Source: a virus. Taken from it: a stretch of 58,951 bases of DNA. The notes under the pieces are model-generated. The model was not told where the DNA came from and did not search any database. It saw nothing but the letters and a program-made list of their open reading frames with translations. The position numbers and the translations under genes are program-made. Where the stretch lies: IMG/VR virus record IMGVR_UViG_3300031227_000044, positions 1-58,951 of that record; one strand, 5' to 3'. Below, one piece after another: positions 17,940 to 58,891 of the stretch. Numbering within the stretch: position 1 is the stretch's first letter; every line of letters starts with the position of its first letter.

Positions 17940-18752
17940 TCATCCAAAGGTGCTGATAATGCCCTTGATTTCCTGGTGGGCTCGTTTTAGATTGCTGTGG
18001 TAGTTGTTCTTTAGGGATCCAGGCCCGTTGTACCTACGTGCGATTCTTTTGTAGTTCGGATCATCGCTTCGGAACTCTTCGAGCAGGCCGCGGTCAAGGC
18101 CAATGAAGTGGGCAAATACCTCGAACTGTCTTTCCAAATCCCCCTGGTCTTGGAGGTAATCCACCGACAGGCCGCATCGGTCCACGTTAAATCCCATGAT
18201 CTGGAATAGGCCGAAAGAGGTGGAGTAGAATCTGCGTTCGCGGTCGTCAAGGCTAGGATTGCTGTCCCACACATGGCTTTCAAATCGAACCCTTCCGATG
18301 CCGGCCGTTTCAACCTGAATGATCGCCAAGGCCAGCCCCTGGTTAAGGCCCATTTCGGCAATGTCGCCGGAGTCCACCAATGCCTGGTAATAGGTCATGT
18401 AGCTTTCTGTCGCCGGCATGGCGGTGAGGCTCTGAAGCCGATCCAGGAACTCCACGTTGACCTGGGCGATCACTTCGTCGGCCATGAGGAGCTTCTGCTC
18501 GATCACACCAAGCATTGCTGCTGGATCAAAGGTGTCGGCCTGCAACTCTTTGCAGAACTGGAGAAGGCCCCGGCCTGTCCCAACACCCATCTTTCCGTCA
18601 ATAACAGCGGAACCGCTCATGTCGGTGGAGTAGCACAGGTAGACGAGACCCCGCTGAAGGGCGTAGGGCAATCGGTCTCTGATTTCCCAATACTTCACAA
18701 ATGTCTCTGGGTCCGTGTCGAGCAGTTGCGTGATCCACTTTCTTACGTCCAT
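17940..18752 (-). CDS. Endolysin, N-acetylmuramidase family
   Basis: The 270-residue protein has a C-terminal N-acetylmuramidase domain (about residues 135-270): LALAIIQVETAG with the likely catalytic Glu148, RFESHVW, TSFGLFQIMGFN and IARRYNGPG. It should cut the glycan strands of host peptidoglycan for lysis. The N-terminal about 110 residues contain GSAVIDGKMGVGTGRGLLQF, reminiscent of a peptidoglycan-binding repeat. No signal peptide is seen, so export probably needs a holin that I could not identify. The start has GGGGAGA at good spacing. The gene ends the leftward lysis block, just before a terminator. Confidence 0.82.
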   Translation of the reverse strand: MDVRKWITQLLDTDPETFVKYWEIRDRLPYALQRGLVYLCYSTDMSGSAVIDGKMGVGTGRGLLQFCKELQADTFDPAAMLGVIEQKLLMADEVIAQVNVEFLDRLQSLTAMPATESYMTYYQALVDSGDIAEMGLNQGLALAIIQVETAGIGRVRFESHVWDSNPSLDDRERRFYSTSFGLFQIMGFNVDRCGLSVDYLQDQGDLERQFEVFAHFIGLDRGLLEEFRSDDPNYKRIARRYNGPGSLKNNYHSNLKRAHQEIKGIISTFG

Positions 18753-18765
18753 TTGAAGTCTCCCC

Positions 18766-19800
18766 TCAGGTGCCTGCTTTGCGAAGGCGTAATTTGCGTG
18801 TCTGGATTTTCGGCTGTGGCTCTCTTTGGTCTTTGTCGATGTGATGAAGCTGCCCGCCCGCCAAGACCTCGACCTCACCACGCTTTACCGCCGCCAGAAG
18901 GTCCGTAATGGCCTGCTCTCGGATTGCATGGTTGCGGGTATGGGTAGCGTCATATCCCCAGTTGTGGTCCGCAGGCGTGGCTACACAGTCGCTTCGTCTC
19001 AATCCGGCGCTGTCCGCGATTTTCTGTGCCGTTTCTCGCAGGGTTTCAATGGCCCATGGTTCTGGCTCGAAGTCAGCAGCGTCAGTGGTCGTTCCCGTCA
19101 CGGTCACTAGCGCACGGTCATCGCCAGCTTCTTCCGCTATACCAACCAGGCTATCGTTCTCACCAGAAACAGGGTGAACAACCGGTGCTTCTAACTCGAC
19201 CCCTGCGGTCCGAAACGCCTCCAGACTCCTGCTGAAATCATCCATCGAAAGTGCGCTGGACGACATTGCCTGCTGAAGCATTGTTCTTTGCACGGCATTT
19301 TCATAGCGCCGGGCCCGTTCAGCGTCAAATCGAGCCCTTACGCCAGCGGTGATGTCCTGAACAATTTCTACGCCCGTACGCTCCGTGGCCTGGCTCCGAT
19401 CATGCTCTACCACGGCATGGTCCTCGATCAGCTTGCCGACGAAAGGCCGTGCTGGGCCAATGCTTCCAAGACGAAGCATGTGTCCGTTCAGAGAAAAGAC
19501 GCGCCGTCTTGGTTGGGGAATTTCGCCCTTGAGGCCAAGAAGTTGTACCAGATCATCAGCGTGTGCAAGAGTTGCTGTCCTGAAGTACACGTTCTGCGTT
19601 TCCGCCAAGGCAATCGCGTAGGCAAGCTGGAAAGTGGTACGGCCAGATCCAATTGGTGCGCGGCGGAGTCTACCGGTGAGGGCTTCTGTATCGATTTCAA
19701 CCAGCCTGGCCCAGTGGGATTGAAGCCTATTTGGCTCAAAGCCAAGACACCGGATAGCCCGCATAGTGTGGGCACGTAACAGATATTCGTCATTTGCCAT
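18766..19800 (-). CDS. Unknown protein with P-loop-like N-terminus
   Basis: The 344-residue protein is not recognised. Near the N-terminus RAPIGSGRTTFQLAYAIALAE looks like a Walker A loop followed by a helix. The next strand, QNVYFRTATLAHADDLVQLLG, resembles the adenine-side strand of ATPases, but no Walker B partner is obvious. The middle is helical and Arg/Glu-rich; the C-terminus is basic (QTRKLRLRKAGT). The start MANDEYLL has GAGG nearby and overlaps the upstream HTH gene. It lies between the endolysin and a small HTH gene. Lysis, packaging or regulation are all possible. Confidence 0.6.
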   Translation of the reverse strand: MANDEYLLRAHTMRAIRCLGFEPNRLQSHWARLVEIDTEALTGRLRRAPIGSGRTTFQLAYAIALAETQNVYFRTATLAHADDLVQLLGLKGEIPQPRRRVFSLNGHMLRLGSIGPARPFVGKLIEDHAVVEHDRSQATERTGVEIVQDITAGVRARFDAERARRYENAVQRTMLQQAMSSSALSMDDFSRSLEAFRTAGVELEAPVVHPVSGENDSLVGIAEEAGDDRALVTVTGTTTDAADFEPEPWAIETLRETAQKIADSAGLRRSDCVATPADHNWGYDATHTRNHAIREQAITDLLAAVKRGEVEVLAGGQLHHIDKDQREPQPKIQTRKLRLRKAGT

Positions 19801-19981
19801 CTTGTGTGTCCTCATTGGCCCGGAGCCATGCGGTCAGGCGACTGCGCCGTACCCGGATGGTTCCCCCGACCCGAGTGACCCCCATCTCCTTGACAAGGCC
19901 ATACACCTTGGACCGCCCCACCTTCAACTCCTTGGCGATCTCCTTGGGAGTCATGAGTTCGTCTTTGTCGTGCTTGCCCAT
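19790..19981 (-). CDS. Small HTH DNA-binding protein (excisionase/MerR-like)
   Basis: The 63-residue protein has the pattern ELMTPKEIAKELKVGRSKVYGLVKEMGVTRVGGTIRVRRSRLTAWL. This is a winged HTH of the excisionase (HTH_17) class: a recognition helix around GRSKVYGLVKE and a basic wing. It probably binds DNA as a regulator or architectural factor. The start MGKHDKDEL is preceded by GGAAG at suitable spacing. It lies just after the lipoprotein gene and overlaps the next gene. Without an integrase nearby, an excision role is not supported. Confidence 0.75.
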   Translation of the reverse strand: MGKHDKDELMTPKEIAKELKVGRSKVYGLVKEMGVTRVGGTIRVRRSRLTAWLRANEDTQDGK

Positions 19982-19983
19982 GT

Positions 19984-20700
19984 TCACTTCCACCACTGGT
20001 AGAGGTCGTCGCACACGATGAGGCATCCCGACATCTCCGGGTCGCAACGGCCACTACAGTCCGTATCGATGAGGCATTCCACATTGTCTTCCAGACAGTC
20101 TCGGGAGCATCGGTAGTGGGGCAGGCGGTCAAAACACTCCCACAGAACCGTGCAGTCCAGCAGCCCGTACTGCATTGCAAGGCCGCACTGGCGAGAGCAG
20201 ATGATCCGGCCACAGCTTTGCGGAACCGGAAACATTACGCAGCATTCGGAGTAGCAGCCCTGGAATGGAAGGCTGGCTTCGTAAGTGCAGGCACTCCAAT
20301 CTTCTTCCGGGCAGGACGTTCCGGTGTCGTCGTCATCATTATCGTCATTGTCATCGTTGTCGTCGTTATTGTCGTTGTCGTCATCATCATTGTCATCATC
20401 GTCGTCATCGTCCAACGTGCCAGTCAGGAACCAGGGTGGCCTTTCGTCATCGCCGTCATCATCATCGCCATACCCCCCAAAGGCCACACAGCAGCCTGTA
20501 CTGGCCCCGGCGTCCTTCTGGCACACATAGCCCCGGCCCATCGCGATAGTGCACTCAGCGGTAAGGGCGCAGGCGTAGCAGCCATCGTCGTCGTCGTCGT
20601 CGTCGCCACAGCACGACAGGCTAATTACGATGAAGAACACAATGCCGATCAGGAGAAACCAGGCCCAGCAACCATTACCGTATCCATTATCTTGTCTCAT
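19984..20700 (-). CDS. Cysteine-rich lipoprotein with poly-aspartate linkers
   Basis: The 238-residue protein starts with a lipoprotein signal: a hydrophobic FLLIGIVFFIVISLSCC segment with a lipobox-like LSLSC, immediately followed by CGDDDDDDD. A small Cys-rich domain, a long Asp/Asn tract and a second Cys-rich domain follow; 26 cysteines in total suggest disulfides. It would be anchored in the envelope and project outward, and the Asp tracts may bind calcium. AGGAGGT precedes the ATG, and a promoter candidate lies upstream. It resembles surface lipoproteins of some delta-type bacteria, so recent acquisition from a host is plausible. Superinfection exclusion or a lysis role is only a guess. 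Confidence 0.7.
   Translation of the reverse strand: MRQDNGYGNGCWAWFLLIGIVFFIVISLSCCGDDDDDDDGCYACALTAECTIAMGRGYVCQKDAGASTGCCVAFGGYGDDDDGDDERPPWFLTGTLDDDDDDDNDDDDNDNNDDNDDNDDNDDDDTGTSCPEEDWSACTYEASLPFQGCYSECCVMFPVPQSCGRIICSRQCGLAMQYGLLDCTVLWECFDRLPHYRCSRDCLEDNVECLIDTDCSGRCDPEMSGCLIVCDDLYQWWK
20326..20412. repeat. Asp/Asn-coding trinucleotide repeat tract
   Basis: An imperfect run of GTC, ATC, GTT and ATT triplets on the plus strand encodes the Asp/Asn linker of the lipoprotein on the minus strand. The repeat is prone to slippage, so its length may vary in frame between isolates. Confidence 0.85.
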
Positions 20701-20720
20701 CTTGTACCTCCTATGCGGAA

Positions 20721-20750
20721 AGAATGGCACAATCCGGTACAGGATGTCAA
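20721..20750 (-). promoter_or_regulatory. Promoter candidate for the lipoprotein/lysis block
   Basis: Reading leftward, TTGACA is followed after 18 bases by CATTCT, preceded by TG in extended -10 position. An AT-rich stretch lies upstream of the -35. It stands about 20 bases ahead of the lipoprotein start in the only gap of this block. The -10 match is weak (three of six). Confidence 0.4.
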
Positions 20751-20877
20751 GCTTTAATACAATTAAGGGAGTTTTGAGGAACAACTGGCCGGTAATACTG
20801 GTGATAAGCGGAGCGAACAGGAACATCCGGAGGGCGCCACAGGGCCTGGCTCTACCCTCCATGTGTGTCAGATATGC

Positions 20878-22071
20878 TTACACGGGTTCCACGAATCCCT
20901 CGTCAGTTATGGGTCGCCAGATTATGTGAAAGTGCATCTTGCCGCCGACTTGGCTGCCGGTAACGTTCCACCGGATAAAGGTGTCAAAGTCCACGTCTGC
21001 ATTCAACACAATGCTTCTCTTTTTAGGATCCACGCCTTTATCGACGGTAGGCGACCCTGCATTGAAAAGCGTTACTTTTTTACCTGGGTCCTCCGTCTTC
21101 ATTGCTATGGTTCCCACCGGGGCTGTGCTAAGGTCTGCCCCATTATCGAGGGTCATGTCCTCTTGAGCGGGAGATCCGCCACCCGCTGTCCATAGATCAA
21201 AATAAGCATCCGTATTCGTGCCCACCAAAGCGCTTGTGTCAACATGCCCGAAAATTTCCAGGACCTCTACTGCCCCCGTTACCTGGAATAAATTGTATTC
21301 AGTATCAGCACTCATCGTTATCAGTTTGTATTTTGTTTCTGGATAAGCAAATCTGGTCCAGACATTAGCATTATCTACGTCAACCCATCTGCCGTCTCCA
21401 CCACCTGTTGAGCAGTCAACGACCGTCCAATTGGTAGTGGCGGCACCAAGGTAATACCCCGATGTTTGATGTCCGCTGGAGGTGCAGTCACTGAGAATTC
21501 CCGTATTCGAACCGGTGACGTTGAAGCCATAAGTAGCCGCGTCCCCAACAGTACCGCAACCGTATAATCCTGCCTGTGCTCCCGTTACGTTAAATCCTGA
21601 AAAAGTATTCGCAGGGAATCCCGCCAAACAATTATTCAGGATAGCGCCTTCTCCGGTAATTTGGTAGCAATCTGCCCCGTCAACCACTTTGACATTATTA
21701 AGAACGCACTCGTCCCCGCTTACAAGTGTCCCCCCGGCGGCACTGTCTGGAGTTATCCTTAAGAAGCCATCAATTTCACATGAATTGCCCGATACGATTA
21801 GGCCCGTACCAGATGCGGGGTCAATAAGTGTTCCTCTTTCGCACCACATCTCACACGAACTACAAGCTAAATTAAGATTTAGCTCTGTGTACGTCCCTGC
21901 CGTAACGTTCAAAGCGTCACCACTGGACATTGCAGCGATTCCCGCTTTTATTGTTTCGAAGGCAGATTTTGGGGTTTTGCCTGAGTTGGTGTTGCTCCCG
22001 GTCCCTTTGTTTACGTACCAAATACCACCACCAAATTTCGGAATCTGTAAAGTATTGTTTATATAAGACAT
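20878..22071 (-). CDS. Beta-helix tail spike / receptor-binding-type protein
   Basis: The 397-residue protein opens with IWYVNKGTGSNTNSGKTPKSAFETIKAGIAA, the classic start of right-handed parallel beta-helix (pectate-lyase-like) spikes. Short repeated turns with buried Val/Ile and Asn/Cys ladders follow (ITGEGAILNNC, FNVTGAQAGLYGC, FNVTGSNTGILSDC). The last 150 residues form a separate beta-rich cap. It probably sits at the virion periphery and binds or degrades host surface glycan; no catalytic residues are clear. It lies immediately downstream of the tail fibre gene and shares its lower GC content. Confidence 0.62.
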   Translation of the reverse strand: MSYINNTLQIPKFGGGIWYVNKGTGSNTNSGKTPKSAFETIKAGIAAMSSGDALNVTAGTYTELNLNLACSSCEMWCERGTLIDPASGTGLIVSGNSCEIDGFLRITPDSAAGGTLVSGDECVLNNVKVVDGADCYQITGEGAILNNCLAGFPANTFSGFNVTGAQAGLYGCGTVGDAATYGFNVTGSNTGILSDCTSSGHQTSGYYLGAATTNWTVVDCSTGGGDGRWVDVDNANVWTRFAYPETKYKLITMSADTEYNLFQVTGAVEVLEIFGHVDTSALVGTNTDAYFDLWTAGGGSPAQEDMTLDNGADLSTAPVGTIAMKTEDPGKKVTLFNAGSPTVDKGVDPKKRSIVLNADVDFDTFIRWNVTGSQVGGKMHFHIIWRPITDEGFVEPV

Positions 22072-22084
22072 CTAATCGATCTCC

Positions 22085-24049
22085 TTAGACAACGAATAAA
22101 TCCGACCCATTACAATAAACAGTAATCGAATCGTAATCACCAGTAATAACGGCTGTAGCCTGGCCATCAATTGTCTGACCACCTTCTGTAGTAAGCGTAA
22201 TGTTGAAGGCGGAAGCATTGCCACTAGCATCCTTAATAACTAAATAACGACCGGAGGTCATCTGTGCTGTTTTCCAATCAATAGCACAAGTACCAGCAGC
22301 AGTACGTGTAACATGGAGGATATCATCTGCAAGGAGTAGATCATAATTAGCTACGTTTACGGTTGTGACCGCTTTAAAGCGGTCTGCCTTTGCATCAACA
22401 GCGGTCTTCACTGCCTTCTGAGTAACCAAGCTCGTGTCTACGTTACCAGCAAGATCAGTCTTGATCAGCGTGATCCCAGGACCGGCCAACTCACCGATCC
22501 TGACAGCACCAACTAGAGTAGCTTCATCTGGATTATAGGCCAGGATTACGTCGCCTTCTGCTCCATCAACTCCACCACCACCATCTTCTTCACCAGCAAG
22601 TCCACCATAAATATAATTATCTCCGCCATCTCCGCCATCACCTGATGTATCGGCATCACCCCCAGGGCCCGCTCCTAATCGTATACCACCACCCTTAAAT
22701 CCACCACCGACTCCACTTGGCCCTCCTCCACCAGAACCCATAAAGATTATATCGCCAGAGTCAGAGTCTTCACTACCAGTAAATAATGCGATACGAAAAT
22801 CGGAAGAAGATACCCCTCCTAAAACAATTAATCCCCCAGGTATACCATAAGGAGTCCCATCTGATAATGCAAATAGCTCTTCACCAGAGCCGTTTATGGT
22901 AGGGTCTAATACTATTTTGCCATATTCTGAACCACTTGTTTTATCCATTATCTGTGTATATACACCGCCATACTCTACTTTATTTGGTGTTGCTGCATCG
23001 TCATAACCATATAGAGCAATTTGACCAGCTATATCACCCTCACTTGGAGCTGTATCGGAACTTTGCACGAACAATAGGTTAGCAGCATATACTCCTCTTT
23101 CTGCTATGGTCATTTTTTCAACACCAGCCATACTGAAATGATAAACTCCAGGAGTCCCTGCGCCTGAAGTGGTTCGTGTGTCAATTTTAATATGACTTAA
23201 TTTCTGTGCTCCAACATCATAAACTGACTGAATTGTTAGTGCATCTGAAACACTAGAGCCCAACGATATAACTGGATTTCCATCATTCGTGGCATCATAA
23301 ATTTCTAAATCTGTCAATCCTGTTATATCATGACCATCTACATCTAATGTCGCATCCAATTTACCATCTGCGCCAATAATGTTGTTGATCGCAGCCCGGA
23401 CTTCGGTATCAAGAACATGTTGGTCGTCGGCCAGAAGGCCTGAGAGAGCGGTAACGGAGATTTCATCTGTCCCGCCGTTCTCGTGGCTCCCATGGTGGCC
23501 TTGTGGCGCGTTGTTGGCGGTCACGTCCGCAAGAGCCTCCATGCCATCGAGTTTCGTCTTGTCGGCCCCGGACATGAGGCCGGAATTGCCGGCTGCAATC
23601 GCATCGGCAATCGTGTCCCCACCGCCCGTGACGTGGGTTGCAGCATGGTCTTTCGGTGGCTGGTCGTCGGCAAGTTCGCCGCTCAGGCCGGCCACGTTGA
23701 TCTCGTCACCGCCGCCGTTCTGGTGGGTCGCTGCATGAAGTTGGGCATGGTGGTCGTCAGTGGTCTGCCCGCTCGTGGAAGCATGGGGAAGGGTCCCGGT
23801 GTGATCCACTCCATCAATGGCATGGGCCTGGTTGTGATGATCGTTCGCCGTCTTTCCGGAAGTAGAAGCATGGGGCAACGTGCCCGTATGGGCCGACCCA
23901 GAGATATCATGGGCAAGAGGTGTCTGGGCATCGCCAGCAAGACCGGACAGCCCCGCGATGGAAACTTCGTCAGCCCCACCATTCTCATGCGTGGGCGCGT
24001 GGACACCAGGCACTCCGCCGTTCGTCTTGGGTGTTATGCGAATAGTCAT
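22085..24049 (-). CDS. Tail fibre protein with repeat shaft
   Basis: The 654-residue protein has an N-terminal third built of repeats such as THENGGADEVSIAGLSG, HTGTLPHASTSG and HENGGTDEISVTALSGLLADDQ, common in trimeric phage fibre shafts. A beta-rich distal region with a Gly-rich loop cluster (SGGGGPSGVGGGFKGGG) follows, and a C-terminal domain ends GDYDSITVYCNGSDLFVV. The start MTIRITPKTN follows the upstream stop by a few bases. The distal two thirds are coded by visibly AT-richer DNA than the shaft, pointing to a swapped receptor-binding module. Confidence 0.75.
   Translation of the reverse strand: MTIRITPKTNGGVPGVHAPTHENGGADEVSIAGLSGLAGDAQTPLAHDISGSAHTGTLPHASTSGKTANDHHNQAHAIDGVDHTGTLPHASTSGQTTDDHHAQLHAATHQNGGGDEINVAGLSGELADDQPPKDHAATHVTGGGDTIADAIAAGNSGLMSGADKTKLDGMEALADVTANNAPQGHHGSHENGGTDEISVTALSGLLADDQHVLDTEVRAAINNIIGADGKLDATLDVDGHDITGLTDLEIYDATNDGNPVISLGSSVSDALTIQSVYDVGAQKLSHIKIDTRTTSGAGTPGVYHFSMAGVEKMTIAERGVYAANLLFVQSSDTAPSEGDIAGQIALYGYDDAATPNKVEYGGVYTQIMDKTSGSEYGKIVLDPTINGSGEELFALSDGTPYGIPGGLIVLGGVSSSDFRIALFTGSEDSDSGDIIFMGSGGGGPSGVGGGFKGGGIRLGAGPGGDADTSGDGGDGGDNYIYGGLAGEEDGGGGVDGAEGDVILAYNPDEATLVGAVRIGELAGPGITLIKTDLAGNVDTSLVTQKAVKTAVDAKADRFKAVTTVNVANYDLLLADDILHVTRTAAGTCAIDWKTAQMTSGRYLVIKDASGNASAFNITLTTEGGQTIDGQATAVITGDYDSITVYCNGSDLFVV
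23420..24001 (-). repeat. Coding repeats of the fibre shaft
   Basis: About 190 codons contain diverged repeats of two kinds, H-x3-H-x-N-G-G-x-D-E-[IV]-x-V-x-x-L-S-G and HTGTLPHASTSG. Both are visible as DNA similarity. They can support recombination with other fibre genes. Confidence 0.75.
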
Positions 24050-24053
24050 GACA

Positions 24054-24404
24054 TCAACCCCCCAGGGCTTGCCACTGAAGCTTCTGCCCAGCAGTGTCGG
24101 ATATCGCGTACAGCTTCTCCACATCCAGGAATGCACTCGAGCCAGGCTCCCAGTCACCGCTGTACACGATCGACTGGCTCTTCTCGATCGACACCGCCCC
24201 ACCGGCCACCACGCCACTGTTGCCAATCGAGATCGTGGCAGTCGCGGAGTTCCCGTTCGGCGCCACACCATCGGTGCTCTGGAACACCACCGACTGCACC
24301 TTCTCCAAATCACTGATCTGGCCAGGTGCGATAATGAGACCAGCAGCCACCGCACTCACCTCGATCTCGCCCTGAGCCAATATCTCCAATGTGAAGTCTG
24401 CCAT
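24054..24404 (-). CDS. Small fibre-associated beta protein of unknown function
   Basis: The 116-residue protein begins MADFTLEILAQGEIEVSAVAAG and has two similar halves, each with ISDLEKVQSVVFQS- or VSIEKSQSIVYSG-type strands, suggesting an internal duplication. It could be a virion decoration or a fibre attachment protein. It is the first gene of the fibre transcription block and ends five bases before the fibre start. GGAGGG lies upstream of the chosen ATG. The family is not recognised. Confidence 0.55.
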   Translation of the reverse strand: MADFTLEILAQGEIEVSAVAAGLIIAPGQISDLEKVQSVVFQSTDGVAPNGNSATATISIGNSGVVAGGAVSIEKSQSIVYSGDWEPGSSAFLDVEKLYAISDTAGQKLQWQALGG

Positions 24405-28952: not shown

Positions 28953-31049
28953 ATGAACGAAAACCCGTACATTGCAAGCGCGACCTATTCGCCCGAAGAT
29001 AACAAGCTCCGGATTTGCATGTTCTCTGATGACCGCTTGGAAAAGGATCTTTACGACCGGGTGAGGAAGGTTGGTTATCGTTGGGCCCCGCGTCAAAAGA
29101 TTTTCATTTGCCCCGCTTGGAATCCTGCGGCCGAGGATCTGGCCCTGGAATTTGCCGGGGAGATCGACGACGAAAACAGCACGATGGAGGAGAGAGCGGC
29201 CGAGCGGGCCGAGCGGTTCGAGCAGTACAGCGAGAAGCGGCAAGCAGATGGAGACCGGGACAGCGCCAACGCGGACCAAATAGCGCAACGATTCGCCGGG
29301 GGGCAGCCGATCCTAGTGGGCCACCACTCCGAGAAGAAAGCCCGCAAGGACGCGGAGCGCATTGATACCAGTATGCACCGGGCCTTGAAGATGTGGGAAA
29401 CGTCCGAATATTGGAAGCAACGCGCGGCCGGAGCCCTTCACAATGCAGAGTATAAGCAACTCCCCGGCGTCCGGGCCCGACGTATCAAGAAACTGGCCGC
29501 AAGCCTGCGGAAGAGCAAGAAATACCTGGACAAATCCGAAGCAGGATTGAAGGCGTGGACCGCCGACAATCTCACTCCTGAACGGGTAGCCTTTCTGATC
29601 GGCCATGATTCCCTCGTGTCCATGGAGCTATACCTTGCCCATCGGGACGGCAAGGTGACCGACGAGGAGGCGAAGGGGCGAAGGGTACGAGGTGCCCGGG
29701 TGGCAATCGCCTATTATCTCCGATGGATTCGGCACTATGAGCACCGACTCACCTATGAACGCGCCCTCATGGCCGAAGATGGCGGGATGAAGGCCGAAGG
29801 GATCGACATCAAGCCAGGCGGGAAGGTCTGTTACCTGGGCGAATGGCTCACGGTCATCAGGACAAATCGCCGAGACGGTGAACTCGTCAGCGTGACAACC
29901 ACCAGCCCGGCCGGCATGACCTACCGGAGCACCTACCCGGTCCCGGCCGAAGCCATCACGGACTATACCGCCCCGACCGACGACGACGCCAAGAAGATCA
30001 GGAAGGCCAAAGCGAGGCCCCCGATTTGCAACTACCCAAAAGAGGGGACATATCCGGTCAAGTGGGAGGCATGGCAAGCAGAGCACACGGACTATCGAGG
30101 GATGCGGGTAGTTGAGGCCACGACCGAACACGGAGCGCACCGGGTCCGGACTATGCTGGGCTCCCATATCGGCCTGCATGGAGACATGAACAAGCGCCAC
30201 AGCTACCATTCCGTTTTCATCACCGACAAGCCCGAGAAGCAGCCCCCGGCCCCTCCGGAGCAACCCGAGGAACAAGAGACGCTTTCAAGCATGAAGGCAG
30301 ACCACGAACTGGCCGCACGGGTGGCACAGGGAGCACCGAAGCGGAGAGAGTACAAGCCCAGCCCCACCCGTGAGAAGATCAACCAGGCCCGGGACACCAT
30401 CAAGGCAGGGATCAAGGTTGTGAGCGCCCCGACCCTTTACCCAACGCCCAAGGAGATAGCCCGGCGTATGGTCGAAATGGCCGGGGGTGTCTGCATCGCT
30501 GGACACCGAGTCCTTGAGCCTAGCGCCGGAACCGGAAACTTGATCAAGGCAGCGGTAAACACTGCAACGGGTTTTGATTGCGTCCGGGTAGTTGCGGTCG
30601 AAATCAACCACGACTTGGCCGGGGCCCTGCGGGGCATGCGCAGCAAGTTTCTTTATGGCACCGAGAGCAACTTTGAAATTCACCAGGGCGACTTCTTAGA
30701 TATGACCCCGAAGGACTTGGGAGACTTCAACACAATCATAATGAATCCGCCTTTCAACAAGGGCGCGGACATCAAGCACATCGAACACGCAACGAGTTTT
30801 CTCAAGCCTGGCGGAACGCTGGTGGCCCTGTGTGCCAACGGACCCCGGCAGCGGTCGGCATTCATGGACAAGGCCGAGCATTGGGAAGACCTCCCGGAAG
30901 GGTCATTCAAAGAAGCAGGGACGGGCGTAAACGTGGCCCTGATGGTGCTGCGGGGAGAGCAGAAGACCGAGCAGCCCGAGGCCAGAGAAGAAAAGAAAGG
31001 GGCACCGGCTCCAAACCCCAAGGCAATCCAGCAACTTGGGCTATTTTAG
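28953..31049 (+). CDS. DUF3560 - DNA methyltransferase fusion protein
   Basis: The 698-residue protein joins two parts. The N-terminal part has the DUF3560 signature (RAERFEQYSEKRQ, then QPILVGHHSEKKARKDAERID and MHRALKMWETSEYWKQRAAGA). The C-terminal part (about residue 510 onward) is a class I SAM methyltransferase, with VLEPSAGTGNLIKA and the catalytic NPPFNKGADIKHIEHA of the N6-adenine group. The middle carries a small beta domain and a charged linker. It probably modifies phage or host DNA early in infection; DUF3560 may add specificity. It is the first gene after its own promoter. Confidence 0.82.
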   Translation: MNENPYIASATYSPEDNKLRICMFSDDRLEKDLYDRVRKVGYRWAPRQKIFICPAWNPAAEDLALEFAGEIDDENSTMEERAAERAERFEQYSEKRQADGDRDSANADQIAQRFAGGQPILVGHHSEKKARKDAERIDTSMHRALKMWETSEYWKQRAAGALHNAEYKQLPGVRARRIKKLAASLRKSKKYLDKSEAGLKAWTADNLTPERVAFLIGHDSLVSMELYLAHRDGKVTDEEAKGRRVRGARVAIAYYLRWIRHYEHRLTYERALMAEDGGMKAEGIDIKPGGKVCYLGEWLTVIRTNRRDGELVSVTTTSPAGMTYRSTYPVPAEAITDYTAPTDDDAKKIRKAKARPPICNYPKEGTYPVKWEAWQAEHTDYRGMRVVEATTEHGAHRVRTMLGSHIGLHGDMNKRHSYHSVFITDKPEKQPPAPPEQPEEQETLSSMKADHELAARVAQGAPKRREYKPSPTREKINQARDTIKAGIKVVSAPTLYPTPKEIARRMVEMAGGVCIAGHRVLEPSAGTGNLIKAAVNTATGFDCVRVVAVEINHDLAGALRGMRSKFLYGTESNFEIHQGDFLDMTPKDLGDFNTIIMNPPFNKGADIKHIEHATSFLKPGGTLVALCANGPRQRSAFMDKAEHWEDLPEGSFKEAGTGVNVALMVLRGEQKTEQPEAREEKKGAPAPNPKAIQQLGLF

Positions 31050-44041: not shown

Positions 44042-45241
44042 ATGTCAGACGAAAATCACGAAGTCGAAGCCTTCCAGCCCCTTGAGGCCGAGCTTTTACC
44101 GAAGGAGCATCAGGCCGTACAGGCGCCCACCATCGACTACCACATGTTCGAGGTGGCGCATCGGATGGGCGACCGCGACCTGGGCCTCATCAAGGACAGG
44201 GTTGAGTACGAGGCGTCCCAGAGCCCGAGCGACATGACCTACCAGTGGTCCGCAGGCGGCTCGATCATCAAGGGCGCGACGATCAAGCTGGCCAACATCA
44301 TCGCCCGGAACTTCAAGTGGATCGCCGTGGACACCCAGGTCATATCCGAAAACTCCCGTGAGTGGAAGATCAAGGCCGTCATTGTTGACTTCCAGGAAGG
44401 GCAAATCTATGGCCGAATCTTCGTGCAGCGCAAGAGCCAGAGGGCGGGCGGCAAGATGGATGAAGCCCGCGCCGAAGACATCGCCTTTCAGATCGGCCAG
44501 AGCAAGGCGGTTCGCAACGTGGTGCTGAATTACGCCCCGCCCTTCATCGTGGACGCGGCAATCGAAGCGGCCGAGCAGGGAACGCTGACCAAGATTCGCA
44601 AAATGGGCCTTGAGAAGGCCATCCAGAGATCCACGAAATACCTGGCCACATTCAAGATCGGCGAAGCCCGCATCGCCGGCAAGCGCGGGAAGCCCTTTAA
44701 GGAGTTCCTGGATTCGGACGTGCTGGCCCTGTGGGGCGACTGCACGGCGATCAAGGAGGGGCAGATCGGAGCCGACGCCGCCTTCCCCGAGATCAAGGAC
44801 GTGCCGGAACCCAAGGCCAAGCCGAAGCCCGCTCCCAAGCCCGCGCCCAAGGCAGCACCCGCCCCCAAGCCCAAGGCCAAGCCTGCACCGAAGCCGGCCC
44901 CGGAGCCCGATCCGGAACCCACACCGGGGGTGGATGACGAGCCCCCCGAAGATACCGCCCCGGGCGACGACCTGTTCGATGACCTGGATCCCGAGTCCGC
45001 CCCCGAACCGGAGCCCGAGCCTGAACCGGAGCCTGAAGGTGTGCCGGATGAAGACGTGGCCATGGACCTTGAGGTAAGGCTCGTCGGCCTTGAAGACGAG
45101 TACGGCAAGGAGCGGGTTGGCAAATACCTGGATGCGGTCCTGGACGCCGGATGGAACAATTCCACCAACACCGAGAAGTCCAACGCGATGGCCATGGCTC
45201 GGGATGCGTTTGAGCAGGCAAAGAAGAACAGCGAGAAATAG
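44042..45241 (+). CDS. Putative single-strand annealing / recombination protein
   Basis: The 399-residue protein has a folded first half (about residues 25-220): QWSAGGSIIKGATIKLANIIARNFKWIAV, VIVDFQEGQIYGRIFVQRK, and AFQIGQSKAVRNVVLNYAPPFIVDAA. This pattern occurs in phage annealing proteins that assess DNA with recombination nucleases. A long PKPAPK linker and an EPEPEPE acid tract precede a helical C-terminus. Neighbours (nuclease, SSB, RusA) support a homologous recombination role. AAAGGAG is optimal. The exact family is not fixed. Confidence 0.55.
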   Translation: MSDENHEVEAFQPLEAELLPKEHQAVQAPTIDYHMFEVAHRMGDRDLGLIKDRVEYEASQSPSDMTYQWSAGGSIIKGATIKLANIIARNFKWIAVDTQVISENSREWKIKAVIVDFQEGQIYGRIFVQRKSQRAGGKMDEARAEDIAFQIGQSKAVRNVVLNYAPPFIVDAAIEAAEQGTLTKIRKMGLEKAIQRSTKYLATFKIGEARIAGKRGKPFKEFLDSDVLALWGDCTAIKEGQIGADAAFPEIKDVPEPKAKPKPAPKPAPKAAPAPKPKAKPAPKPAPEPDPEPTPGVDDEPPEDTAPGDDLFDDLDPESAPEPEPEPEPEPEGVPDEDVAMDLEVRLVGLEDEYGKERVGKYLDAVLDAGWNNSTNTEKSNAMAMARDAFEQAKKNSEK

Positions 45242-53875: not shown

Positions 53876-54083
53876 AAGCGCAGGACAGGCAGCGGAAAGG
53901 GGCATCATGGAACACCTGGCCTACGATAAAGAGAAGGGCTACCAGACCAATTGGGACTTCGTGCGGCTGGACGTTGTTAGCTATTTGTGGGAGATGCACG
54001 AATTGTTTATGGGCGATGCGATCAAGGTCTACGGGAAAGCGAAAAGGAAACACGAATCAGTCCTTGATCCAACCACGACTTAG
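53865..54083 (+). CDS. Last rightward gene, small helical protein
   Basis: The 72-residue protein is acidic and helical (GQAAERGIMEHLAYDKEKGY, RLDVVSYLWEMHELFMGDAIKV). GAAGGAG precedes the start within the previous gene. Its 3' end overlaps the convergent leftward epimerase gene by 27 bases, so the two transcription units meet tail to tail without a visible terminator. Confidence 0.58.
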   Translation: MDDESAGQAAERGIMEHLAYDKEKGYQTNWDFVRLDVVSYLWEMHELFMGDAIKVYGKAKRKHESVLDPTTT

Positions 54084-54962
54084 GTAGTCTGCAATCGTCT
54101 TGGTCAGTCCACTACGAAGGTCAGTCTTGGGCGTCCAGTCCAGTTCTTCCTCTGCCGTCACGAAGTCCATGCACGACAGCGGGTTTCCGCCCGACTCAGA
54201 AGAGTAATGCAGAACCTCGATTTTGTCCGTGACCAATTCTTCGATCATCGACCACAACTTGTTGACGGACGTGGCAATGCTGGTCGAGACATTCACGGTT
54301 TTCCCGTCCCCTACTTTCCCGGCCATCCGGAACGCCAACACAACGTCATCCACGTATACGAAGTCCCGCTGCTGTTCGCCCGATCCCTTGATGGCCGCAG
54401 CCCGTCCCTCCAGTGCAGCCTTCAGGAAAGACCCCACCACGGCCTTAGGCTTCCACTGGTGCCCATATACGTTGCTGAGCCGTATGATCGTAGCCCGAAG
54501 GCCCTTCTGCTCATACAGGCGAATGTACTCCTCACTCGCGGACTTCGTGATGCCATAGGCGCTTCTCCACGGCGCCTCTTGAGGACTCCACCGGTCTTGC
54601 GGAAGACTGTACATGGCCCCGGTGCCGGCGAAGACCAGCTTGGCTCCACAGGCCAGGCAGGAACCAGCCGTCGCCACGGTCGCCTCGATGTTCGACTGGA
54701 TCCCCTTCCGCAGGATATCGAGGTCAAGCGAAGAGGCTATCCCGGATTCAGCGGCCAAATGAAAAACCACATCCGGGTTGAACTCCCGAATTGCTCTCTG
54801 GGCCTCCGGGGTTTCCAGTCTCGCTTGAATATGGTTGGACCACGGCCTTGGAAAAGGAAGGGGCAGGAGGTCCACCGTGAGAACATGGTGGGCTTCTTGT
54901 TCCAGGCTTGCGGCCAGGTGTCCCCCGATGAACCCTGCCGCCCCTGTTACCACGGCCTTCAT
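54057..54962 (-). CDS. NAD-dependent sugar epimerase/dehydratase (extended SDR)
   Basis: The 301-residue protein has the Rossmann motif GAAGFIGGHLA, DVVFHLAAESG in the second strand region and the catalytic pair in YGITKSASEEY. It would convert a nucleotide sugar, perhaps like UDP-glucose 4-epimerase; the substrate cannot be told. The start with ATGA overlap to the next leftward gene was chosen over a GTG upstream. It is the last gene of the glycan cluster. Confidence 0.8.
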   Translation of the reverse strand: MKAVVTGAAGFIGGHLAASLEQEAHHVLTVDLLPLPFPRPWSNHIQARLETPEAQRAIREFNPDVVFHLAAESGIASSLDLDILRKGIQSNIEATVATAGSCLACGAKLVFAGTGAMYSLPQDRWSPQEAPWRSAYGITKSASEEYIRLYEQKGLRATIIRLSNVYGHQWKPKAVVGSFLKAALEGRAAAIKGSGEQQRDFVYVDDVVLAFRMAGKVGDGKTVNVSTSIATSVNKLWSMIEELVTDKIEVLHYSSESGGNPLSCMDFVTAEEELDWTPKTDLRSGLTKTIADYLSRGWIKD

Positions 54963-56119
54963 AGACGCCACTGCACTTTGGGCAGGATGGAATCCTGGCA
55001 GTCACGAATCCGATCCGCATGAGGAGCCAGGTCGGACAACATGGCCAGCAATTCAGCCTTCATGTCATGGGTGGGTACATAGCCCAGGTCGAGGAGCTTT
55101 TGATGGTCAGGCTCGTAGAAATGTTCTTCTGCTTCTTTCCTTGGGTTCTGGACGGCCTGGATCGCAATCTCCCTCTCGAACACTTCCTGGCCGGCTTCCG
55201 CAACGGCTTCCGCCAACTCGGTGATGCCGTAGATGTCCTCAAACTGGTTGACGACCCGGTATTCACCTTCCGCAGGGGGCTTCTCCAGCAGCAGCGTCAT
55301 GCACTGGATGGAGTCCCGCAGAGTCAGAAACCCCCGAATCTGGCGACCCTTGCCGTAAGGGGTCAGGGGCAGCCCGATGGTAGCTTGAGCACAGAAGCGA
55401 TTGATGACCGTCCCGAACGCTTCGTCGAAGTCGAACCGGGTACATAGTCCGGGATCCAACATGGTCTCGTCCGTCTTGGTTCCGTAGACCGGGCCCTGCA
55501 TGATGTCGGTGGACCGGAAGCCCCACGCTTTGCACACGAGAGCGATGTTGGTTGAGTCGTGAACTTTGGTGGCATGGTAGAAGCTGCCCGCAGCTTTGGG
55601 GAACGGGACGGTGGCGGTGTGGCCCTTGTAGCTCATCTCGCAGAACCCTTCAGCAATGGGCATCCCGGGCGTTCCATATTCGCCCATCGTTCCCAGCTTC
55701 AGCAGGTGGGTTTTCGGGCAAGCCTTTTGCATGGCCCAGAGCAACGACAGGGTGCCGTTGATGTTGTTGTCGTGGGTGAAGCGGGCGTGTTCGAAATCAA
55801 TCATGGAGTACGGAGCCGATGGCATCTCGCCCAGGTGAACGATTGCGTCCGGTTGGAAGATTTCCAGCAAGTTAACCACCACGGCATGATTCCGAACGTC
55901 AATTTCCTGGTAGTCAATAGATTTTCCGGTCTTGTCTTGAAAGATTCCCAGACGCTCCCTCATGGGAAGAATGGGCAACGCCGAGACACTTCCCATCTCC
56001 GCTACCATGTCCCGGCGACTCCCGTTGTCGATGCCAAAAACATCATGACCGCGCTGCGCCAGGTGCATTGCCAGGGGCCAACCAAGATAGCCGTCCATTC
56101 CGATGATGAAAATCTTCAT
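54959..56119 (-). CDS. UDP-sulfoquinovose synthase (SQD1)-like enzyme
   Basis: The 386-residue protein has the long family signature of SQD1: IIGMDGYLGWPLAMHLA, VHLGEMPSAPYSMIDFE, KLGTMGEYGTPGMPIAEG, SFYHATKVHDSTNIALVCKAWG and PYGKGRQIRGFLTLRDS. SQD1 makes UDP-sulfoquinovose from UDP-glucose and sulfite. The catalytic Thr in LGTMGEYGTP and the Tyr-Lys in YHATK are retained. It is unexpected in a phage and may make a sulfonated sugar for a glycan. Coupling by ATGA joins it to neighbours. The family is near certain; the product is inferred. Confidence 0.85.
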   Translation of the reverse strand: MKIFIIGMDGYLGWPLAMHLAQRGHDVFGIDNGSRRDMVAEMGSVSALPILPMRERLGIFQDKTGKSIDYQEIDVRNHAVVVNLLEIFQPDAIVHLGEMPSAPYSMIDFEHARFTHDNNINGTLSLLWAMQKACPKTHLLKLGTMGEYGTPGMPIAEGFCEMSYKGHTATVPFPKAAGSFYHATKVHDSTNIALVCKAWGFRSTDIMQGPVYGTKTDETMLDPGLCTRFDFDEAFGTVINRFCAQATIGLPLTPYGKGRQIRGFLTLRDSIQCMTLLLEKPPAEGEYRVVNQFEDIYGITELAEAVAEAGQEVFEREIAIQAVQNPRKEAEEHFYEPDHQKLLDLGYVPTHDMKAELLAMLSDLAPHADRIRDCQDSILPKVQWRL

Positions 56120-56928
56120 TTCAGTCTTTCCATGTGCGAGGTGTATAACGCCTGTGCTTCTTCGACACTAGAACAAGGAAAGAGCAACAAGGAGGCGTGT
56201 TCTCTGGCCCCTTTCGTGCGCTTCCCACCCGGCATCCACTGTAGCTCTATTTCGTCAAACTTCTTCTCAGCCGGGGGCCGGGGCCTGGTGGCCCGAATTT
56301 CCCCCCCGACAAATTGGCCTTGAGTTGACGACAACGATTCGACGATCAGGCCAAACCCTTCCGAGGTGCCCATAGCGCATCCCCAGCCGTGGCCAGTAAA
56401 CCCAACCTTCAGTCGTTGCGGAATCGGGGCCTCCACCATCGGCTCAACGGCCAGAGGCTCCCATGCCTTCTGCTCGTCAGATCGAATGCCCATGTACGTT
56501 GGCCTCACTGCCCCAACGGCGTATCTTTGCGTAGCCCCTCCTGGAGCGAGGAAGCAAATCGAAGTGTCCCCAGATGATTCGATATCTCGCAAATACATGC
56601 GGCTTACATCGATCCTCAACACTCTTGGGTCATCGGTTTCCATCAGAACGGTTCTGAACTCTTGAGTGTCCCCCCGACCTTCTTCCGTGCGGGACTCCCC
56701 CCTTATCAGTATCCCGGATTTGGTTCGGACAACCTTGGCGTCTTCGCAATACAGCCCTCCGAGGAAGTGATTAGCAGACCGATATTTTTGATCTACCCGT
56801 ACCTCTGGGAACAACTCGATAACCTCGTGGAGGGCGCCCCTGTCCGACAGGACGCCATCTTTGCCCGAAAATCGAATCAATCCTCTTGAAAGAACTTCAA
56901 CCGTATAATGTGAAGTTGAAATCTCCAT
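56116..56928 (-). CDS. Beta-rich protein of unknown function in the glycan cluster
   Basis: The 270-residue protein has many beta strands (STSHYTVEVLSRGLIRFSGKDGV, VVRTKSGILIRGES, LRIDVSRMYLRDIE) and a late GFTGHGWGCAMGTSEGFGLIVESL. It resembles a carbohydrate-binding or mutarotase-like sandwich in general pattern only. The start was set at MEISTSHYT, two bases after the upstream stop, because longer forms would overlap that gene entirely. Its glycan role is inferred from context. Confidence 0.55.
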   Translation of the reverse strand: MEISTSHYTVEVLSRGLIRFSGKDGVLSDRGALHEVIELFPEVRVDQKYRSANHFLGGLYCEDAKVVRTKSGILIRGESRTEEGRGDTQEFRTVLMETDDPRVLRIDVSRMYLRDIESSGDTSICFLAPGGATQRYAVGAVRPTYMGIRSDEQKAWEPLAVEPMVEAPIPQRLKVGFTGHGWGCAMGTSEGFGLIVESLSSTQGQFVGGEIRATRPRPPAEKKFDEIELQWMPGGKRTKGAREHASLLLFPCSSVEEAQALYTSHMERLK

Positions 56929-56930
56929 CG

Positions 56931-57557
56931 TCAGCGCTTTCTCCACACATAGAGAGTAATGACTCTGTTGTTGAAATCTCTCGTCATCGTCAGGAATGGA
57001 TACAGGGAAGGAGGTGTGGCCTTGCGAACCTCTGAGGTCGTCAGATAGGAACGTATTTGTTTCCGATTCCGTTCGTCTTGATACCAATCCAAGGCGACGT
57101 AACCCCCTGGCCTTAGCAACTCCGAGGATCGAGACAAGAATTCGTCGGGCCCTTGTTCGAGATCGTACCAAGAATCCATGCAGCTAATCAGGCCCAAAGA
57201 CGCTGGGGCCATACCGTCCAAGGGGTCTAGCTTGCTTCCCTGTCGGAACTCTGCTGGTATTCCAACCTTGTCCCACAGACCTTTGGCGATCAGGCCCTTG
57301 GATGCGTCATAGTCCGTGCCGATCAGATTGCGGTAGCCCATGTCGCCGATGTAGGCCAGCCAGAAGCCAACGCCACAGCACACGTCCACAATCGGGGCAT
57401 CTTTCGGAAGGCTCGGAAGAACATGACCCCTGAGGTTTGAGATAATCCACCCACCGGACTGCCTGGGGTTTCGACGGAGGAAATATCCCAAATACCGATC
57501 CCGAAGTTCAGGGGCCAGGTCCTCCAAGGCCGCTTGGATTTTATCTCCTATCTCCAC
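56931..57557 (-). CDS. SAM-dependent methyltransferase
   Basis: The 208-residue protein has a class I fold with APIVDVCCGVGFWLAYIGDMG (motif I), LIGTDYDASKGLI and a later LLRPGGYVALDWYQ. In its setting it may methylate a sugar or lipid head group. It overlaps the adjacent GT-MT gene by ten bases. The substrate is unknown. Confidence 0.72.
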   Translation of the reverse strand: MEIGDKIQAALEDLAPELRDRYLGYFLRRNPRQSGGWIISNLRGHVLPSLPKDAPIVDVCCGVGFWLAYIGDMGYRNLIGTDYDASKGLIAKGLWDKVGIPAEFRQGSKLDPLDGMAPASLGLISCMDSWYDLEQGPDEFLSRSSELLRPGGYVALDWYQDERNRKQIRSYLTTSEVRKATPPSLYPFLTMTRDFNNRVITLYVWRKR

Positions 57558-58891
57558 AGTTCCACCGCCATGAGATCCCTGGTTACTTTTGTCTGCCCGC
57601 GATGAACGACCATGCGGGCCGGCTTGACGGCTTCAAACAGCTTGGTCCAGGACTTCTCGCGAAGGCGCTGATAGATGAACCCGGACTGAATCAGGGTCTT
57701 GTCCTCGGGCAAAAGGTCTACCCCGAATACGCGCACAATCAATACCGTGCCGGTTATCCTCCAAAGTTCCGAGATGGCAGTGGGGATTTTGTCGAGAGGC
57801 AAGTGCGGAAGCACCGCCGCACAGTTGACGAACGGATGGCTGCGTGTTTTCTGCTTGCTCTTGAAGATGTCGTCCAGTTCAACGTCGATGGCCGGGAATC
57901 TTTCTCGGGCCCGGAGAAGCATATCCCTGGTAACGTCCACGCCCTTGTAGGACAATTTCAAAACCTTGGATAACTCGGGGTAGTCTTCGCCAGTACCGCA
58001 GCCGAAATCAAGCACTGTTGACGACCCGGACTCGGGCGCCACATCATGGAGGATATCGTAGTAAAGCTTCCGCCGTTCCTGCTGGTTAGGGTCATTCTTC
58101 CAGAAATCCTCAACCGCTTCTCGTGCAGGAGCCTGCTCCCATCGCTGCCACCACCGATCATCGAATATCCGCTCCAACTCCTTCAGGGAGTTTGTCCAGG
58201 AAATCCCCCGGCTCCGAACTTCAGCGATCCGCTTGGGCGCATCCTGCACTCGCTGGAGTTGAAAGACCTCTGGCACATGAAAGCCCTTGATCCCATTCCT
58301 GAGCATGTGCCAGACGACCCGCCATTCCTCGTGCTCGGGGAAGGAGCGATCCAGGTAGGGCGATACCGTCTCCCAGGCGGATCGACGGTAGGCATAGTAG
58401 GAACCCCTGAACAGGTTGGCCTTGCTGCGGTCCTGGATCATCTGAGATGTCCGGACAATCTCATCGCCTGCCTTATGAGAGCCGTCACTCTGGTCCACCA
58501 TGAACTGAGCTTGGATGTCGGTATGGACGAAGCCCACATCAGCGGCCACGCTGTCGAGGGGAAGGGGCCCCAAGGCCAAATCGTCATCGTCAAGATTGAC
58601 AATCCAATCCCCGGAAGCCTTGTCGAAAAGACCAAATCTGGCCCTTGCCAAGTCTTTGCGCTGGTCCGTCCCACCGAGAATCTTGATTTCCACGCCGGGG
58701 CGCCCACGCAAAGCCGCACGACTCACTCTGGCGATGTCGGCATGATCGTAGCCGTACTTCCCGGATGACACTTGCGGGCTGATGCCGAAGAGGATTTCAT
58801 TCGGCAGCGCGTATTTCAGAAGCGACTCGATGGCTTCCTGCACAACCTTGAAGTCTGGTTGGGAGATAAGCATACAGGCGGTGACTTTCAT
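57548..58891 (-). CDS. Glycosyltransferase-methyltransferase fusion
   Basis: The 447-residue protein has two parts. The first (about residues 1-250) is GT-A like: a CMLISQPDF start, RKDLARARFGLFDKASGDWIVNLDDDD with a DxD-type metal site and a later SFPEHEEWRVVWHML. The second (about 280-447) is a class I methyltransferase with STVLDFGCGTGEDYPELS. Together they could add and then methylate a terminal sugar. The gene is coupled by ATGA to the partial gene upstream. The family calls are good; the acceptor is unknown. Confidence 0.78.
   Translation of the reverse strand: MKVTACMLISQPDFKVVQEAIESLLKYALPNEILFGISPQVSSGKYGYDHADIARVSRAALRGRPGVEIKILGGTDQRKDLARARFGLFDKASGDWIVNLDDDDLALGPLPLDSVAADVGFVHTDIQAQFMVDQSDGSHKAGDEIVRTSQMIQDRSKANLFRGSYYAYRRSAWETVSPYLDRSFPEHEEWRVVWHMLRNGIKGFHVPEVFQLQRVQDAPKRIAEVRSRGISWTNSLKELERIFDDRWWQRWEQAPAREAVEDFWKNDPNQQERRKLYYDILHDVAPESGSSTVLDFGCGTGEDYPELSKVLKLSYKGVDVTRDMLLRARERFPAIDVELDDIFKSKQKTRSHPFVNCAAVLPHLPLDKIPTAISELWRITGTVLIVRVFGVDLLPEDKTLIQSGFIYQRLREKSWTKLFEAVKPARMVVHRGQTKVTRDLMAVELWR

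What the first reader, a model, noticed from the sequence alone, without database searches (positions are those of the whole stretch)
19984..20700. Poly-aspartate, 26-cysteine lipoprotein in a phage
A lipobox is followed at once by seven Asp, then two Cys-rich domains joined by a slippage-prone Asp/Asn tract. Such architecture resembles host surface lipoproteins and is unusual in phage genomes. It could change the surface of infected or lysogenic cells (exclusion of other phages) or help outer membrane disruption.
Basis: partly seen in the sequence, partly recalled or inferred. Interest (0 to 1): 0.62.

Follow-up and report, generated by a model that had tools for sequence, protein, structure and literature searches.

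The report
Host-type Asp/Cys-rich lipoprotein in phage
A tailed phage from metagenomic sequence carries a copy of a cysteine-rich, aspartate-tethered lipoprotein type that otherwise occurs in the chromosomes of the uncultured phylum Candidatus Lernaellota, which points to that phylum as its host and suggests that the phage remodels the surface of cells it infects, perhaps to keep other phages out.

Summary
In detail: window 19984-20700 (-) encodes a 238-aa protein with signal peptide, lipobox-like S-L-S-C-C-G, seven Asp, a 6-Cys motif, an Asp/Asn tract and a 17-Cys C-terminal domain (26 Cys in all), behind a perfect AGGAGG. No phage, plasmid, Pfam, PHROG or IMG/VR relative was found. Both Cys domains have homologues in genomes of Ca. 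Lernaellota (GTDB FEN-1099). The 6-Cys module recurs in at least 11 Lernaellota proteins, mostly between Asp tracts. The 17-Cys domain is present, with almost the same Cys spacing, in two Lernaellota lipoproteins; one (genome G007) shares the whole layout and lies in ordinary chromosome. Profiles of host sequences alone pick this one ORF out of 17,718 phage ORFs. So it is a cellular lipoprotein type carried by a phage (moron-like), and the phage probably infects Lernaellota. Function is inferred: envelope or surface display, most likely superinfection exclusion like T5 Llp, also encoded just downstream of a receptor-binding gene. A spanin role is disfavoured. The slippage claim is weak: the long tract uses mixed codons. 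Expression, localisation and host are untested.

The parts
19984..20700 (-). lipoprotein gene, 238 aa, 26 Cys (ATG 20700, TGA 19984)
20707..20712 (-). Shine-Dalgarno AGGAGG
   Evidence: sequence directly
20745..20750 (-). TTGACA, possible -35 of an own promoter (no good -10; not called by the promoter scan)
   Evidence: scan negative; weak
20614..20700 (-). signal peptide with hydrophobic core (residues 1-29)
   Evidence: hydropathy 2.12 over 19 residues
20608..20613 (-). Cys30-Cys31, predicted lipidation site (S-L-S-C-C-G)
   Evidence: sequence; Lernaellota homologues have A-L-S-C, T-G-S-C, L-F-S-C at this place
20584..20604 (-). poly-Asp run D33-D39
20488..20580 (-). domain 1: 6-Cys module CxxCx4ECx4GxG[WY]xC...CC
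   Evidence: alignment A1 with 11 Lernaellota proteins; host-only profile E=1.6e-5
20326..20412 (-). Asp/Asn linker (residues 97-125)
   Evidence: the (N)DD style matches genomes G006/G007
20011..20313 (-). domain 2: 17-Cys domain
   Evidence: alignment A2 with L226 and L208; 16 invariant Cys; host-only profile E=5.2e-7
19790..19981 (-). HTH_17 / excisionase-like regulator starting just after the lipoprotein stop
20878..22071 (-). virion fibre-type protein immediately upstream of the lipoprotein gene
   Evidence: phrog_17885 tail fibre, E=2.9e-5; 75% identical protein in the structural module of L277

Best explanation
The gene is a phage-borne member of a modular family of Asp-tethered, Cys-rich lipoproteins of Candidatus Lernaellota, acquired from (or shared with) the host and kept as an accessory (moron-like) gene in the leftward structural gene block of a myophage that most likely infects Lernaellota. 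Proposed working: the protein is exported by Sec, lipidated at Cys30 (or 31) and sorted like the host's own lipoproteins to the outer envelope. The poly-Asp and Asp/Asn tracts act as extended anionic tethers, and the two disulfide-rich domains fold into stable knobs displayed away from the membrane. There it most likely occupies, blocks or mimics a host surface component so that infected or lysogenic cells no longer adsorb the same or related phages (superinfection exclusion, as T5 Llp or T1-type Cor lipoproteins do). Shown: gene anatomy, homology of both domains to Lernaellota lipoproteins, chromosomal location of a host homologue, no relative found in other phage records searched. Inferred: host identity, lipidation, surface display, exclusion function.
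For: Domain 1: 11 Lernaellota proteins with the same 6-Cys signature, mostly flanked by Asp tracts. Profile hits in a Lernaellota genome reach E=1e-14 with further unseen copies, while five other poly-Asp-bearing genomes give nothing below E=0.04 and only 5 of 189 Myxococcota genomes have weaker hits. Domain 2: found by plain protein search in Lernaellota G007 at E=5.8e-4; L208 and L226 share the Cys spacing, 0 of 20,000 shuffles as good. Profiles built from host sequences only rank this ORF first and alone among 17,718 ORFs from the window and 80 other viral loci (E=1.6e-5 and 5.2e-7). L226 lies in ordinary chromosome beside cytochrome-bd-like, rubrerythrin-like and ferritin-like genes. No relative in other viral records. 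Its place just downstream of a virion fibre gene parallels T5 llp, 'adjacent and downstream to pb5' (PMC9586334). Acidic residues after the lipid Cys drive surface export in Bacteroidetes (SDDDD; PMC5080379).
Against: No CRISPR spacer match (one third of the window against 7 genomes) and no TerL relative in Lernaellota confirm the host; the capsid match in G004 is distant (32%). Domain identity is only about 27% (domain 2), so transfer is not recent, or the true donor is unsampled. The fibre homologue in L277 lies between capsid and connector-type genes, so it may be a head or collar fibre and not a receptor-binding protein, which weakens the Llp analogy. No function is known for any Lernaellota relative. 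Surface export by an acidic signal is shown only in Bacteroidetes. No integrase was seen among the genes searched, so lysogeny is open.
Confidence: 0.42

Rival explanations
1. Envelope-fitness moron: the lipoprotein supplies the host's own (unknown) lipoprotein function, e.g. binding a substrate, metal or neighbour cell, to infected or lysogenic cells, with no role against other phages.
For: Both domains are host-type and modular; the host chromosomal homologue sits by cytochrome-bd-like and rubrerythrin/ferritin-like genes; one 6-Cys module type recurs in many different Lernaellota proteins.
Against: Domain 2 was found in only two of seven Lernaellota genomes, so not an evident core function; the position is inside the phage structural block.
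Confidence: 0.28
2. Lysis accessory (outer-membrane spanin or disrupting lipoprotein), because the muramidase gene is a few genes downstream.
For: Same strand and gene block as the muramidase 17940-18752; no other membrane protein seen nearby.
Against: No C-terminal transmembrane segment (needed for a u-spanin), no i-spanin-like gene with N-terminal TM next to it, no PHROG lysis match; the homologue is an ordinary chromosomal gene.
Confidence: 0.1
3. Virion structural or adsorption protein (Cys-rich adhesin) displayed on the particle.
For: It lies between a fibre gene and packaging genes; the fibre is a structural module in L277.
Against: Signal peptide and lipobox direct it to the envelope; absent next to the same fibre gene in L277 and from 39 related virus records.
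Confidence: 0.06
4. Calcium-binding or anionic surface coat: poly-Asp tracts bind divalent cations and alter cell-surface charge or aggregation.
For: 46 net negative charges; Asp/Asn runs.
Against: The tracts differ in length and make-up between relatives and look like tethers; no calcium-binding motif match in Pfam.
Confidence: 0.14

Closest known systems
Ca. Lernaellota lipoprotein L226 (genome G007, contig 22, 59056-59385)
   Same: Signal peptide, lipobox, poly-Asp, small Cys motif, Asp tract, 17/18-Cys C-terminal domain with CC and CLIDTDC motifs; Cys spacing nearly identical
   Different: About 27% identity in domain 2; its small Cys motif is of another type; chromosomal and not in a phage
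Ca. Lernaellota proteins with the 6-Cys module (e.g. L206, L219, L228, L196)
   Same: Same 6-Cys module after a lipobox and Asp tract
   Different: Followed by other C-terminal domains; the phage module has a six-residue insertion before the final CC
T5 Llp / T1-type Cor superinfection-exclusion lipoproteins
   Same: Phage-encoded lipoprotein directly downstream of a fibre/receptor-binding gene; disulfide-constrained (PMC9586334)
   Different: Much larger (238 aa), two Cys domains, Asp tethers, host-type; no sequence match; target unknown
Bacteroidetes lipoprotein export signal (SDDDD, K-(D/E)2)
   Same: Acidic run just after the lipidated Cys (PMC5080379)
   Different: Other phylum; longer Asp run; surface export not tested

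Membership tests
Lernaellota Asp-tethered Cys-rich lipoprotein family (defined here) | signal peptide and lipobox followed by an Asp tract | tested here: met
   hosts
Lernaellota Asp-tethered Cys-rich lipoprotein family (defined here) | 6-Cys module CxxCx4ECx4GxG[WY]xC..CC | tested here: met
   host-only profile E=1.6e-5, sole significant hit among 17,718 ORFs
Lernaellota Asp-tethered Cys-rich lipoprotein family (defined here) | 17-Cys C-terminal domain with conserved spacing | tested here: met
   16 invariant Cys; E=5.2e-7; 0/20,000 shuffles
Superinfection-exclusion lipoprotein (Llp/Cor-like in function) | phage-encoded lipoprotein gene directly downstream of a receptor-binding/tail-tip gene | tested here: inconclusive
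   Downstream of a fibre-type gene, but that gene's role in receptor binding is unproven
Superinfection-exclusion lipoprotein (Llp/Cor-like in function) | expression blocks adsorption of the same phage | not testable with these tools
   needs an experiment
Llp/Cor by sequence | sequence similarity to Llp/Cor | tested here: not met
   no tblastn match among 50,697 phage records; no PHROG match
Two-component or unimolecular spanin | paired i-spanin gene, or C-terminal TM in a lipoprotein | tested here: not met
   hydropathy scan of the window

The most novel reading that the evidence does not exclude
A phage of the uncultured phylum Ca. Lernaellota encodes a mimic, built from the host's own lipoprotein modules and Asp tethers, that is displayed on the surface and blocks or decoys the phage's receptor: surface conversion by a domain-shuffled host lipoprotein, and a first sequence link between a phage and this phylum.
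Probability: 0.3. Interest if true: 0.65.

Novelty: new variant of a known kind. Interest (0 to 1): 0.45.

Why it matters
It gives a testable host assignment for a phage of an uncultured phylum for which I found no phage report in the papers held. It defines two undescribed disulfide-rich modules (6-Cys and 17-Cys) of Lernaellota lipoproteins, and it suggests that phages there alter the host surface by carrying the host's own type of tethered lipoprotein, a variant of lipoprotein-based superinfection exclusion known mainly from coliphages.

Tried and rejected
Whole-protein searches in viral contigs, phages, plasmids and genome contigs gave nothing: exact peptide seeds and low-complexity masking hide such relatives. 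Pfam, PHROGs and PDB by sequence: only Asp-tract noise or nothing. Poly-Asp-driven hits in Lernaellota were not counted unless the Cys domains matched. CRISPR link: the best match outside low-complexity sequence (28/30 nt, L271) is a Walker A motif of an IstB-like gene, not a spacer. TerL in Lernaellota: none. Spanin, virion-protein and slippage readings were rejected or lowered as stated.

Full report
What is there. The window is a virus record of 58,951 bp holding a contractile-tailed phage: sheath, tape measure, major head protein, portal and terminase are identified. The leftward block contains, in order of transcription, a methyltransferase, fibre-type genes, the lipoprotein, an HTH_17 regulator, an unknown protein, a muramidase, a 259-aa protein without matches, the large terminase and the portal. 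The lipoprotein ORF 19984-20700 (-) has a perfect AGGAGG and ends 2 nt before the ATG of the HTH gene. The 177-bp gap upstream is, with a 181-bp gap between the muramidase and the 259-aa gene, one of the two largest gaps in this stretch. It holds a TTGACA 50 nt before the ATG, but no convincing -10, and the promoter scan does not call it, so an own promoter is possible but not shown.

In detail: signal peptide, S-L-S-C-C-G, seven Asp, six Cys, Asp/Asn tract, seventeen Cys, 26 Cys in all. The long tract uses mixed codons, so 'slippage-prone' applies at most to the short poly-Asp run.

Search for relatives. Direct searches found nothing in IMG/VR, INPHARED phages, PLSDB plasmids, the genome collection, Pfam or PHROGs. 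FEN-1099 is the GTDB name of Ca. Lernaellota, also called Podoxiota (PMC11382960); that this MAG belongs to it rests on its bin name. Four of the five Cys-rich CGD7 lipoproteins in that set are from this MAG. The same pattern in 2.9 million viral contigs gave 7 stretches, none with a signal-peptide-like region.

Searches within the seven held genomes of that phylum found homologues of both domains. Domain 1: proteins in most of the genomes carry C-x2-C-x4-E-C-x4-G-x-G-[WY]-x-C-...-CC, usually between Asp tracts, often right after the lipobox and sometimes near the C-terminus (alignment A1). Domain 2: L226 in G007 (E=5.8e-4 by plain protein search) and L208 in G002. The Cys spacings are 7-10-3-0-8-4-3-10-5-8-3-6-5-3-6-3 (phage), the same with one shorter loop and one extra Cys (L226), and 7-10-3-6-4-3-10-5-8-3-6-... 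(L208). Sixteen Cys are invariant. Shuffles never reach the shared run of spacings (0 of 20,000). Profiles built only from host sequences pick the phage ORF as the sole significant hit among 17,718 ORFs of the window and 80 other phage loci (E=1.6e-5 and 5.2e-7). The domain-2 host sequences were themselves found through the phage query, so that second figure is not wholly independent; the spacing test and the shared layout are the main support there.

L226 lies among genes that read as cytochrome bd subunits, rubrerythrin, desulfoferrodoxin, ferritin-like and Fur/PerR-like proteins (identified by reading the sequences, not by a family search). It is thus most likely an ordinary chromosomal gene, not a prophage gene. 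Five other genomes with poly-Asp lipoproteins lack domain 1 (best E=0.04), and 5 of 189 Myxococcota genomes have weaker domain-1-like hits, so the module is strongly enriched in, but perhaps not exclusive to, Lernaellota. Asn as spacer in the Asp tracts, as in the phage, is typical of G006/G007 (0.40-0.50) and rare in G001-G003 (0.02-0.04). This hints at the sub-lineage, with the caveat that many of these loci were chosen with the phage protein as query.

Phage relatives. Large-terminase relatives are distant (best 45%), and 39 related virus records lack domain 2 (the same profile does find the two host copies). The neighbouring 397-aa fibre protein has a 75% identical homologue in L277, where it lies between the capsid gene and connector-type genes, with the next gene 30 bp downstream and no lipoprotein. 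The lipoprotein is therefore accessory to the window's lineage. No integrase was found among the genes searched; replication genes of O/DnaC type, a RusA resolvase and an exonuclease are present.

Mechanism. Sec export and lipidation follow from the signal peptide. By analogy with the Bacteroidetes export signal SDDDD (PMC5080379) the Asp run could favour surface display; this is not tested in Lernaellota. The best-supported role is change of the host envelope. Among such roles superinfection exclusion is the most likely, because phages repeatedly encode exclusion lipoproteins directly downstream of receptor-binding or tail-tip genes (T5 llp downstream of pb5; PMC9586334), and here the lipoprotein follows a fibre-type gene. 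Whether that fibre binds the receptor is open. A spanin role is disfavoured: no C-terminal TM, no partner gene.

Confidence by step: a lipoprotein homologous to Lernaellota lipoproteins, about 0.93; the phage infects Lernaellota, about 0.7; displayed at the surface, about 0.6; acts in exclusion, about 0.4. Novelty: a new variant of a known kind (phage-encoded envelope lipoprotein), with domains that no searched library describes and a new host link; no paper I found in the held library reports a phage of this phylum.

Noticed in passing
L277:947-4614: In another virus record the window's fibre pair lies shortly after the major capsid gene, so window 20878-24355 may encode head or collar fibres and not tail fibres.
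   Followed up: partly
window 44650-45040: Low-complexity stretch inside ORF 44042-45241 that gives many short DNA matches to all seven Lernaellota genomes.
   Followed up: no
L225 (G004 contig 149, 756-1106): A 323-aa ORF in a Lernaellota genome resembles the window's major head protein (32%, E=3.5e-7): a possible prophage fragment.
   Followed up: no
window 28953-31049: 698-aa protein joining a DUF3560 domain to a methyltransferase-like domain.
   Followed up: no
window 54057-58891: Nucleotide-sugar epimerase pair and a methyltransferase at the right end: possible surface-glycan modification genes carried by the phage.
   Followed up: no
L234, L237, L239: In some Lernaellota proteins the 6-Cys module sits near the C-terminus after an Asp tract, e.g. 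in repeat proteins with DVNxDGYDDV motifs; it may be an attachment or sorting tag.
   Followed up: partly
window 20116-20757 (+): Antisense ORF of Val/Ile runs is only the mirror of the Asp/Asn codons; not a gene.
   Followed up: yes
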